Source: Planctomycetota bacterium
Lineage (GTDB): Bacteria > Planctomycetota > UBA1135 > GCA-002686595
Length of the DNA: 35,756 nucleotides
Assembly (NCBI GenBank): GCA_029248265.1
Contig: JAQWJQ010000019.1
Location: 1-35,756 of the forward strand
Direction of reading: 5' to 3'
Positions 32,826 to 35,378 of this stretch are shown one piece after another. Positions within the stretch are counted from its first letter, which is position 1. Every line of letters begins with the position of its first letter. The notes below the pieces were generated by a model. That model made no database searches. It worked only from the letters and a program-made list of their open reading frames with translations, and was not told where the DNA came from. Position numbers and translations under genes: made by a program.

Positions 32826-35378
32826 TCAGCGCGCCTCGAGGTCCTCCGTGACCACCGTCATGAACTCCACGAAGGGCGACCAATCCTTGATGGTCCCACC
32901 CTGGAAGCGGCCGAGCTCCTCCTCGGAGGAGGGGTCCACCGCCACGTAGATGGGCTGGGCGGGGCTGCCCGCAAGGGTGTCGATCAGGCCCGCGATGCGC
33001 TCTCGGAGCTCGAGATCGTGGGCGTCCGAGTGGAGCCGGGCCTCGACCCAGCGTTGCTTGAGTGCGCGGACTTCAGGCTTGGGGAAGATGGAGACCTCCA
33101 TCTTGCGGCAGACCACTCATGTGTGACCGGTGAAGTTCACCAGGACCCCCAGCCCTCGCTCTCGCGCGACCTTCAGGGCCAGGTCGTAGTCGTCCAACAC
33201 CACCAGCGAGCCGGCCTGGCGCTTGACGCCCGCGGGAAGGGCCAGGCTCCCAGCGCTGCTGACGACCTCGGCCTTGTGGGTCTCCACCAGGCCACGGGAG
33301 TAGCTCGGCGGCGGCGCCATGGCTGACATGATCGTCTCGTCGAGGTGATACCCCAGGACCCCCATGAAGCAGTAGGCAGACCCGATCAGGGTCACCAGGC
33401 CGCCGCAGAGCCGGCCGGGTCCGATCTCGCCGTCGGGGGACTCGCCCTTCAGGTTGATGCGGCCGAAGAGGTACATGGCCGCGGCGAGGCCGATCGCCGC
33501 CCACATCATCAGGAAGACCTCGCGCGGCAGCCAGCCGGCCTGCAGGGCGATGTCCGCGTTGGAGAAGAACTTCAGCGCGGCGGCCAGCTCCACGAAGCCC
33601 ATGAACACCTTGAGCGTGTTCATCCATCCGCCAGCGGAGGGGATCGCGCTCAGGCGGCTGGGGATCAGCGCCAGGACGACGAACGGCGCCGCCATGGTCG
33701 CGCCGAACACCCCCATGCCGATCACGATGCGCATCACGCCGCCGCTGGCGCCCGCGGCGATCAGCGTGCCGACGAAGGGGCCCGTGCAGGTGAAGCTCGT
33801 GATCACCAGCGTCAGGCCCATGAGGAAGACGCCGTAGATGCCGCCGGTCCCGCTGGCCTTACCCGCAGCCCCCATGAGGAAGGCGGGCGGGTTCAGGTTG
33901 ATGGCCCCGAAGAGCGCGAGGGCGAACACGACGAACAGGACGCCGATGAACAGGTTGGTCACATAGTGCGTGGCGAAGGGCACCAGCAAGGGGCCGGCGA
34001 GCACGCCGAGGAGCACGAACATCAGCACGATCCCGAGCCCGTACACCGAGGCCAGCAGGAGCGCGTTGCCGCCCCGCTCGTCCGCCTGCTTGGTGAAGAA
34101 GGAGATCGTGATGGGGATCATCGGGTAGGTGCAGGGCATCAGCAGCGTGAAGAGCCCCGCGCCGATGGCCAACAGAATGAACTCCAGCAGCCCCTCGCTC
34201 TCGGTCTCCTGGCCGAAGGAGCGCCGCTCGCCGTCGGCCGCGGGGGCCTCGATCGTGGGCGTCGATCCGGCTGCGCCGACGACGGACTCCGCGACGTCCA
34301 CGGCGCCGGACTCCGGCGCGGCGTCCGCCCCGGCGCTGGGCGCAGCGTCCGGTTCCATGTCCGCCCCTGCGCCGCCGCTGGCGGCCTGCGGGAGGGTCCA
34401 CGTGGCGAAGGCCGCCGCGAACAAGGCGTCCGAACCGGCGCCCACGACCTCGACCCCGGAGAGGTTGACCGGGAGGCAGGAGCCGTCGTCGCACGACTGG
34501 CCGTCGAGGCTGATCTCCAGATCGCCCGGGTCGAACTCGTCGAAGGCCTCACCGCGGAGGGCGAAGTGGAAGAGACCCTCGTGGGCCCAGAGCCACCCCT
34601 TCTCCTCGTCCGCAGCGTCCTGGACGTAGCGGAACGGTTCGGGATAGTGGACGTCCTCGTCCCAGTCCACGTTGCCGCCCTCGACGGTGACCGTGGTCGG
34701 GGACCCGATCCCCGGCCCCATGTCCTCGGCGCTGGGGCCGTGGTACATGTGCCAGTGCTCGGGCGTCGCCACCTGCACCACGAGCTCGACGATCTCGCCG
34801 TCGTCCCCGTCGAGCACCCGGGCGAAGGCCCGCGCCGCCGCCGCCTCGTCGCCAAAGGCAGGGCTCCACTGCAGGGGGTCCTCCTCAGGCTCCGCGAGCA
34901 GCGACTCGGGGAAGCCCTCCCAGACGGACTCCGGGCCGGCCCCGAGGGTCGCCAGGTCCTCGTCGAACGGGAGGCACTGGTTCTCGTTGCACACCTGCCC
35001 CTCGACAAGAGCGCCGACCGCGCCGGCGTCGACTCCAGCGGCCGCGGCGCCACGGGCGGCGGCGAAGAAGTACGTCTTCTTGTCGAAGACGCGCGCCGGG
35101 CCATAGCCCACGTCGGGCTTCACCTTCGGCTCGGGGTACCAGACCTCGCTCCACTCCGCGCCCTCGACCTCTCCGAGGGTCACCGTCGTCGGCAGCCCCC
35201 CGACCTCGCTCGGGTCCCCCTTGTCATAGACCCAGCAGCCGTAGGACGGCCGGATCTGGATCGCCACGAGCACGTCGTCGCCAGCAGCCTTCGAGAACAG
35301 CTTGACCTTGACGTCCTGAGCGATCGCCGGCGCGAGCGTCCCGAAGGCGATGAGGAGGAGAGAGAGGAGTCGGGACAT
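32826..35378 (-). CDS. dsbD: DsbD-type thiol:disulfide interchange selenoprotein (in-frame TGA read as selenocysteine)
   Basis: 850 residues if the TGA at 33119-33117 is read through. DsbD carries electrons from cytoplasmic thioredoxin across the membrane to periplasmic partners. Signal peptide 1-21 (ends APAIAQ). Two DsbD-alpha-like domains follow, with Cys pairs C130-NENQ-C135 and C296-DDGS-C301. An Ala/Pro/Gly linker leads to the eight-helix core, with C416 (LMPCTYPMIPI) and C531 (FTCTGPFVGT). The C-terminal thioredoxin domain reads VLVNFTGHT-TGA-VVCRKME; family members have FTGxTCxxCRKME, so the TGA (residue 754) replaces exactly the first catalytic Cys, and the frame continues unbroken for 96 more residues. 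A SECIS-like hairpin follows. The ATG has AAGGA before it. A chance Cys-to-TGA mutation is the main alternative; the hairpin argues against it. Confidence 0.85.
33085..33104 (-). other. Predicted bacterial SECIS element
   Basis: In the dsbD mRNA, 8-bp arms AAGAUGGA and UCCAUCUU pair perfectly around a GGUC tetraloop. The stem begins 12 bases and the loop 20 bases after the UGA, inside the 16-37-base range known for bacterial SECIS loops. Guanines in a 3-14-base apical loop are the feature recognised by SelB; E. coli fdhF also has GGUC-containing loop sequence. The hairpin lies in coding sequence (KMEVSIF), as required in bacteria. Confidence 0.8.
33117..33119 (-). other. Recoded TGA (selenocysteine codon) in dsbD
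   Basis: The TGA is in frame with both sides and gives a U-V-V-C redox motif. The upstream part alone would lack the thioredoxin active site; the downstream part alone (96 residues, GTG first) would lack the first Cys and the first strand of the fold. No selA, selB, selC or selD gene is in this window. Confidence 0.8.

What the first reader, a model, noticed from the sequence alone, without database searches (positions are those of the whole stretch)
32826..35378. DsbD whose thioredoxin active site is Sec-x-x-Cys
Sequence: one frame from 35378 to 32826 is interrupted only by TGA at 33119-33117. The context FTGHT-TGA-VVCRKME aligns with the DsbD C-terminal motif FTGxTCxxCRKME, so the TGA replaces exactly the first, nucleophilic Cys. 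Knowledge: Sec usually replaces catalytic redox Cys, and UxxC thioredoxin-fold selenoproteins are established. Inference: this DsbD is a selenoprotein, which would lower the pKa and speed electron transfer to periplasmic partners. I do not recall a described DsbD with Sec at this site but cannot search.
Basis: partly seen in the sequence, partly recalled or inferred. Interest (0 to 1): 0.93.

Follow-up and report, generated by a model that had tools for sequence, protein, structure and literature searches.

The report
Selenocysteine DsbD of the Planctomycetota
A membrane protein that carries reducing power out of the bacterial cell (DsbD) very probably has selenocysteine in place of its key catalytic cysteine, read from an internal stop codon, and the same is seen in many relatives across its bacterial phylum.

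Summary
Confirmed. The frame 35378-32826(-) is broken by one TGA (33119-33117), exactly at the first Cys of the CxxC of the C-terminal thioredoxin domain of a DsbD-type reductase. The genome has tRNA-Sec, SelA, SelB and a Sec-type SelD. Every relative read has TGA, TGC or TGT there: 75, 5 and 1 of 81 distinct near rows, and 64, 21 and 5 of 90 loci across the phylum. Twelve bases after the TGA lies a hairpin, AAGAUGGA-GGUC-UCCAUCUU, that meets every point of the published bacterial SECIS model. A GGUC hairpin is in 79 of 124 distinct TGA rows and 0 of 30 Cys rows, and its stem covaries. In most rows that have it, its spacing is outside the published range. A Sec-containing DsbD-gamma-like domain was tabulated from ocean reads in 2008 (PMC2398784), so the motif is not wholly unseen. 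A full-length Sec-DsbD is not in the 2026 table of prokaryotic selenoproteins (PMC13188914). I rate it a new variant of a known kind.

The parts
32826..35378 (-). Sec-DsbD gene, 850 residues with Sec at 754, then a TGA stop
33117..33119 (-). in-frame UGA read as Sec754, at the place of the first (nucleophilic) Cys of cDsbD
   Evidence: TGA or a Cys codon in every relative read
33085..33104 (-). SECIS hairpin, 8-bp stem with GGUC loop (33096-33093), 20 nt between UGA and loop
   Evidence: -8.7 kcal/mol, 0 of 200 shuffles as low; two sister relatives share a compensatory change
34929..35312 (-). first N-terminal nDsbD (alpha) domain, residues 23-150, with C130/C135
34440..34838 (-). second beta domain, read as nDsbD-like, residues 181-313, with C296/C301 invariant in 51 rows
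   Evidence: the nDsbD likeness is my reading of strand order and Cys spacing
33309..34193 (-). transmembrane DsbD_TM domain, residues 396-690, with C416 and C531 invariant
   Evidence: PF02683 E 4.9e-21 at 400-605
32829..33227 (-). C-terminal thioredoxin domain (cDsbD/DsbD-gamma), residues 718-850, U754-x-x-C757

Best explanation
This is a DsbD-type thiol-disulfide electron conduit whose C-terminal thioredoxin domain uses a Sec754-x-x-Cys757 site. UGA754 is decoded by SelB and tRNA-Sec, steered by a GGUC-loop hairpin 12 nt downstream. Shown here: the UGA, its alignment with Cys, the Sec machinery genes, the conserved and covarying hairpin, the four conserved pairs (C130/C135, C296/C301, C416/C531, U754/C757) and the predicted fold. 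Inferred: electrons go from cytoplasmic thioredoxin to the membrane pair C416/C531, then to U754/C757 by a selenosulfide intermediate, then to the N-terminal domains, then to periplasmic client proteins. Also inferred: Sec is favoured because the selenolate is always ionised and its oxidised forms are easily reversed. Sec is the commoner state among the relatives read, and switched with Cys, in one direction or the other, at least 14-16 times on the tree.
For: Single TGA at the catalytic Cys. Codon tally 99 TGA, 8 TGC, 2 TGT of 109 loci with duplicates; 75, 5 and 1 of 81 distinct rows; 64, 21 and 5 of 90 loci across Planctomycetota, some of them already in the first set. Own tRNA-Sec, SelA, SelB, SelD; in the 14 control genomes SelA rings in 2 and SelB over cut-off in 2, as it should for a rare trait. 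GGTC hairpin with stem of 4 or more in 67 of 75 near TGA rows and 0 of 6 near Cys rows; stem of 5 or more in 50 of 75 against 5.4 expected from synonymous resampling; over all distinct rows 79 of 124 TGA and 0 of 30 Cys. Covariation: 37 double-change cells against 9.2 +- 2.5 shuffled. A compensatory change in the window's own genus. Purifying selection after the UGA. Domain and fold matches.
Against: No protein data. TGA and tRNA-Sec do not associate across the phylum sample (56 of 64 TGA genomes and 22 of 26 Cys genomes have tRNA-Sec, p = 0.74). Eight of those 64 TGA genomes showed no tRNA-Sec; 5 of the 8 have SelB, 3 show neither, and those 3 are listed as 77-90% complete. Outside the near set only 9 of 45 distinct TGA rows have a GGUC hairpin, and generic hairpins are only modestly better than codon shuffles (23 of 124 TGA rows at the 5% tail, 3 of 30 Cys rows). 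The organism's own SelD shows no GGUC in the 75 bases from its UGA. The tRNA-Sec cut-off alone is lenient: 5 of 14 control genomes pass it.
Confidence: 0.96

Rival explanations
1. The TGA is a real stop: DsbD ends after the transmembrane domain, and a second ORF starting at the GTG just after it makes a separate part of the thioredoxin domain by coupled re-initiation.
For: A GTG follows the TGA in the window and a 96-aa ORF is listed; 48 of 124 distinct TGA rows have ATG, GTG or TTG next.
Against: 76 of 124 distinct TGA rows have no start codon next. Split products would cut the thioredoxin fold between strand 744-750 and helix 755-764. Only Cys codons replace TGA. The GGUC hairpin goes with TGA: 79 of 124 against 0 of 30 Cys rows.
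Confidence: 0.02
2. Sequencing or assembly error, or a decaying gene.
For: The window is from an incomplete assembly (82.78% complete).
Against: The same TGA occurs in independent assemblies, including records titled complete chromosomes (CP036434, CP036296, CP036290); dN/dS is well under 1 after it.
Confidence: 0.005
3. UGA is decoded here as Cys or Trp by another suppressor or code change, not as Sec.
For: The protein product was not observed.
Against: The genome has the full Sec set, the hairpin fits the published SECIS model, and the site is a redox Cys. Read with TGA as sense, frames in the window run on through many further TGAs, up to 74 in one, so UGA still acts as a stop.
Confidence: 0.01

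Closest known systems
E. coli DsbD (protein-disulfide reductase)
   Same: nDsbD, transmembrane and cDsbD domains with paired cysteines; fold matches to 1jpe, 1vrs, 1uc7. The Sec stands where C461 of cDsbD stands (PMC3961690 passages).
   Different: Sec for C461; two N-terminal beta domains in tandem; Asn748 where E. coli has Asp455 (Glu468 is kept as E761); far below the cut-off of NCBI's DsbD model (92.8 against 330 bits).
'Trx-like 2 (Thiol disulfide interchange protein)', cd02953, UxxC, 22 sequences in the Global Ocean Sampling reads (PMC2398784, table rows seen)
   Same: UxxC in what I recall to be the DsbD-gamma conserved domain (the identity of cd02953 is recalled, not from a call).
   Different: Not named DsbD; no membrane or N-terminal domains, lineage or SECIS given for it in the passages I saw.
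'Thiol:disulfide interchange protein' PF13098 UxxC, WP_011366075.1 (PMC13188914 Table 1; PMC1794560 Table 3 lists it in Geobacter and Syntrophus)
   Same: Trx-like UxxC selenoprotein.
   Different: The table gives only PF13098; I did not have the sequence, so whether it is a DsbD is unknown.
TsoB rhodanese/DsbD fusion-like selenoprotein (NF045694)
   Same: DsbD membrane region; best NCBIfam hit (105.8 bits).
   Different: Cut-off is 805 bits; Sec motif UxxxxU with two Sec (PMC13188914 Table 1).
Bacteroidota DsbD/CcdA fusion, cDsbD 3f9u
   Different: Cys, not Sec (also L212, L213).
ScsB N-terminal domain (6c29)
   Different: Membership not tested beyond this.

Membership tests
bacterial selenoprotein | in-frame UGA aligned with Cys in homologues | tested here: met
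bacterial selenoprotein | SECIS fitting the published model: loop 3-9 nt, stem 4-16 bp, G in the first two loop positions, 16-37 nt from UGA, at most -7.5 kcal/mol | tested here: met
   window: 4-nt GGUC loop, 8 bp, 20 nt, -8.7 kcal/mol
bacterial selenoprotein | same SECIS model in the relatives | tested here: not met
   56 of 75 near TGA rows have the hairpin with the loop 44 nt from UGA, outside 16-37; the review itself says a subset breaks the model
bacterial selenoprotein | tRNA-Sec, SelA, SelB, SelD in the genome | tested here: met
bacterial selenoprotein | Sec present in the protein | not testable with these tools
   needs 75Se labelling or mass spectrometry
DsbD (domain architecture) | nDsbD, DsbD_TM and thioredoxin-like domains | tested here: met
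   PF11412, PF02683, PF13899 all over cut-off; folds of the first N-terminal and the C-terminal domain
DsbD (domain architecture) | redox pairs in each domain | tested here: met
   C416, C531, C754(U), C757, C296, C301 invariant and C130, C135 at 90% or more in 51 rows
NCBI PRK00293 DsbD subfamily (NF001419) | score over 330 bits | tested here: not met
   92.8 bits; filed as a DsbD-architecture protein, not as this subfamily
TsoB (NF045694) | score over 805 bits | tested here: not met
   105.8 bits
DsbD (function) | reduces periplasmic clients with electrons from thioredoxin | not testable with these tools
   no biochemistry

The most novel reading that the evidence does not exclude
Sec at the cDsbD nucleophile is the prevailing, possibly ancestral, state of a whole phylum's main periplasmic reductant gate. 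Its SECIS is mobile within the coding sequence: at +21 in the window's genus, +45 in most of the near rows, rarely +25, +27, +33 or +39. A second conserved hairpin between UGA and the far SECIS folds the spacer up so that SelB still reaches, an arrangement outside the published spacing model.
Probability: 0.55. Interest if true: 0.75.

Novelty: new variant of a known kind. Interest (0 to 1): 0.66.

Why it matters
It would make the export of reducing power to the periplasm selenium-dependent in much of a phylum, and put an ionised selenolate at a site where E. coli keeps an unusually high thiol pKa of 10.6 (PMC3961690), so the value of that high pKa becomes testable by nature's own swap. The tree offers 11 to 14 independent Sec/Cys pairs of rows. 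SECIS elements outside the published spacing could explain why SECIS-based searches pass over the family; gene callers that stop at UGA would give a DsbD without its thioredoxin active site (inference; I saw no annotation of these genes).

Tried and rejected
Codon against tRNA-Sec across the phylum: no association (56 of 64 against 22 of 26, p = 0.74), because nearly all these genomes decode Sec; this test neither helps nor hurts. Residue at -6 (Asp455 of E. coli): Asn in 91 of 124 Sec rows and 8 of 30 Cys rows, but the difference vanishes when only independent pairs on the tree are counted (median p 1), so I claim no co-evolution. Rfam scan of 32900-33300: no SECIS family hit, three matches far below cut-off. 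Folding the 50-nt stretch as a whole is not exceptional (z -0.70); the signal is in the hairpin itself and in comparison. In L022, a +45 row, two arbitrary 20-22 nt cuts were not exceptional alone either (z -0.36 and -0.65). RNAalifold on the 56 rows chose another long-range helix instead of the distal hairpin; I prefer the hairpin because four of its five pairs show double changes and the alternative's four pairs show none. In one search one of five measures, further pair types, was reached by 63 of 500 shuffles. Generic SECIS scan: TGA rows score above Cys rows (median 17 against 13, p 2e-9) but few single rows beat codon shuffles; so outside the GGUC class I claim no defined SECIS. The proximal spacer helix is partly forced by the peptide: 5 or more of 6 pairs in 47 of 57 +45 rows, but also in 14 of 30 Cys rows. 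Of 66 plasmid records with a match I fetched 5, from four other phyla; all five have Cys. Literature: searches listed no title or abstract about a Sec-containing DsbD. Of the 9 papers that hold both words I opened one (PMC13188914). The library holds open-licence papers only, and supplementary tables (for example S9 of PMC4807772 on planctomycete selenoproteins) could not be read.

Full report
OBSERVATION. On the minus strand, 35378-32826 translates as one protein of 850 residues if the single internal TGA (33119-33117, codon 754) is read through. Pfam finds DsbD_N, DsbD_TM and Thioredoxin_7, all over cut-off. The TGA is the first Cys of the thioredoxin CxxC: a PDB search aligns it with the Cys of 3f9u, a cDsbD from Bacteroides.

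RELATIVES. A scan of named genome contigs kept the best 80 of 149 loci, most of those 80 titled Planctomycetota, among them Poly30 (CP036434, Saltatorellus ferox by my knowledge), Pla86 and Pla163. At the aligned codon, 109 of 119 loaded loci could be read (nine of the ten others are not DsbD loci, one is a fragment): 99 TGA, 8 TGC, 2 TGT, with duplicates between the two sources. After removing identical stretches: 81 rows, 75 TGA, 5 TGC, 1 TGT. Over the phylum, 141 of 294 genomes matched the profile at 1e-60. I read 90 of the listed matches (30 loci given, 60 that I chose and fetched): 64 TGA, 21 TGC, 5 TGT, nothing else. At least nine of the 90 come from the window's family and were in the first set. 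About 30 listed matches that reach the site were not read; by the call's own stop column about 20 of them hold one TGA and 10 none. On a tree of 159 rows with 5 outgroup rows at least 16 Sec/Cys changes are needed (14 without the outgroups). The tree is FastTree with many weak branches, and three of the five outgroup rows (Salinibacter and two Bacteroidota) fell among the planctomycete rows, so I do not claim that the family is one clade or that Sec is shown to be ancestral. In the clade around the window the Cys rows (L021, L023, L027, L030+L033, L071, L143) lie singly or as one pair among Sec rows, as expected of repeated Sec-to-Cys change; all 9 rows of the window's genus are Sec.

MACHINERY. 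The window's genome has tRNA-Sec (70.5 bits, anticodon UCA), SelA, SelB and SelD, the last itself with an in-frame TGA at CAG-U-AAK. In the family, tRNA-Sec is over cut-off in 74 of 81 and SelB in 73 of 81 genomes. Controls: SelA rings in 2 of 14 well-known genomes, SelB passes its cut-off in 2 of 14, tRNA-Sec passes the lenient cut-off in 5 of 14 and E 1e-9 in 3 of 14.

SECIS. Twelve bases after the TGA lies AAGAUGGA-GGUC-UCCAUCUU (33104-33085), -8.7 kcal/mol, better than all 200 shuffles. The published model (PMC13188914, passages) asks for a 3-9 nt loop, a 4-16 bp stem, G in the first two loop positions, 16-37 nt from UGA and at most -7.5 kcal/mol: all met. In the nine rows of the genus the hairpin is kept; in two sister rows (L016, L018; perhaps one event) ATGGAG became GCGGAG on one side and ATC became GTC on the other, so that one U-A pair became C-G and one A-U became G-U while amino acids changed. 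Across the 81 near rows a GGTC hairpin with stem of 4 or more is in 67 of 75 TGA rows and 0 of 6 Cys rows; with stem of 5 or more in 50 of 75, against 5.4 expected from synonymous resampling with codon pools from the same rows. Over all 154 distinct planctomycete rows: 79 of 124 TGA and 0 of 30 Cys rows; the loop starts at +45 in 63, +21 in 10, +25 in 3, and +27, +33, +39 in one each. Cys row L023 keeps the peptide PAVA of many TGA rows but spells Val GTG and so loses the GGTC motif. On the 56 +45 rows, two helices, a proximal one and the GGUC one, have 91.2% of cells paired and 37 double-change cells against 9.2 +- 2.5 in shuffles, and beat all six slid versions; one of the five measures (pair types) was reached by 63 of 500 shuffles. 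My reading, an inference, is that the proximal hairpin folds up the spacer so that a loop 44 nt away can work.

LIMITS. Among the 45 distinct TGA rows outside the near set only 9 have a GGUC hairpin; hairpins of TGA rows are better than those of Cys rows as a group but mostly undefined there. TGA and tRNA-Sec do not associate in the phylum sample, p = 0.74: 8 of 64 TGA genomes showed no tRNA-Sec; 5 of these have SelB, 3 neither. Of the 26 Cys genomes 4 showed no tRNA-Sec, 3 of them also no SelB; two of the three are listed as 100% complete.

KNOWN OR NEW. The 2026 review table, said to hold 119 prokaryotic selenoprotein families or subfamilies (section 7, parts 1 and 2 of 3 read), has no DsbD except the TsoB fusion, which this protein does not match (105.8 against 805 bits). 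It does list 'Thiol:disulfide interchange protein', PF13098, UxxC, whose sequence I did not have. The 2008 GOS paper lists 22 sequences of UxxC in cd02953 (passages), which I recall to be the DsbD-gamma domain. A planctomycete genome paper reports Sec decoding and selenoproteins in other planctomycetes but no Dsb protein in its main text (PMC4807772, passages). Passages of PMC1794560, PMC1088965, PMC12013277, PMC9312934 and PMC5029168 name no DsbD. Hence: a new variant of a known kind, seen in part before at read level.

Noticed in passing
L001 (G000:C34), L009/L216 (G000:C60): Sec machinery genes are scattered: selA and selD matches lie about 1.5 kb apart with an ORF between them that looks (by eye) like a nucleotide-sugar dehydrogenase; tRNA-Sec and selB are on other contigs; SelD has an in-frame TGA of its own.
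   Followed up: partly
window 34929-35312 and 34440-34838: Two beta domains in tandem before the membrane part, each with a CxxxxC pair, instead of one nDsbD; Foldseek's top hit is the ScsB N-terminal part.
   Followed up: partly
L010-L018 against the other near rows: The SECIS loop differs in place by 24 nt (eight codons) between the window's genus and most of its relatives.
   Followed up: yes
L015 (G076:C117): The same-genus relative has an additional in-frame TAG besides the TGA.
   Followed up: no
G059:C38 and G059:C242: One family genome holds two matches, each with one TGA.
   Followed up: no
window 1-32803: Rest of the window by Pfam: a histidine kinase, haem biosynthesis genes (URO-D, HemN-like, GlutR, porphobilinogen deaminase, HemD), flagellar genes (FlgK, FlgI, FlgH, FlgA-type chaperone, FlgE/G-like, FliK), ribose-5-phosphate isomerase, a sulfatase and a reprolysin-like protease.
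   Followed up: partly
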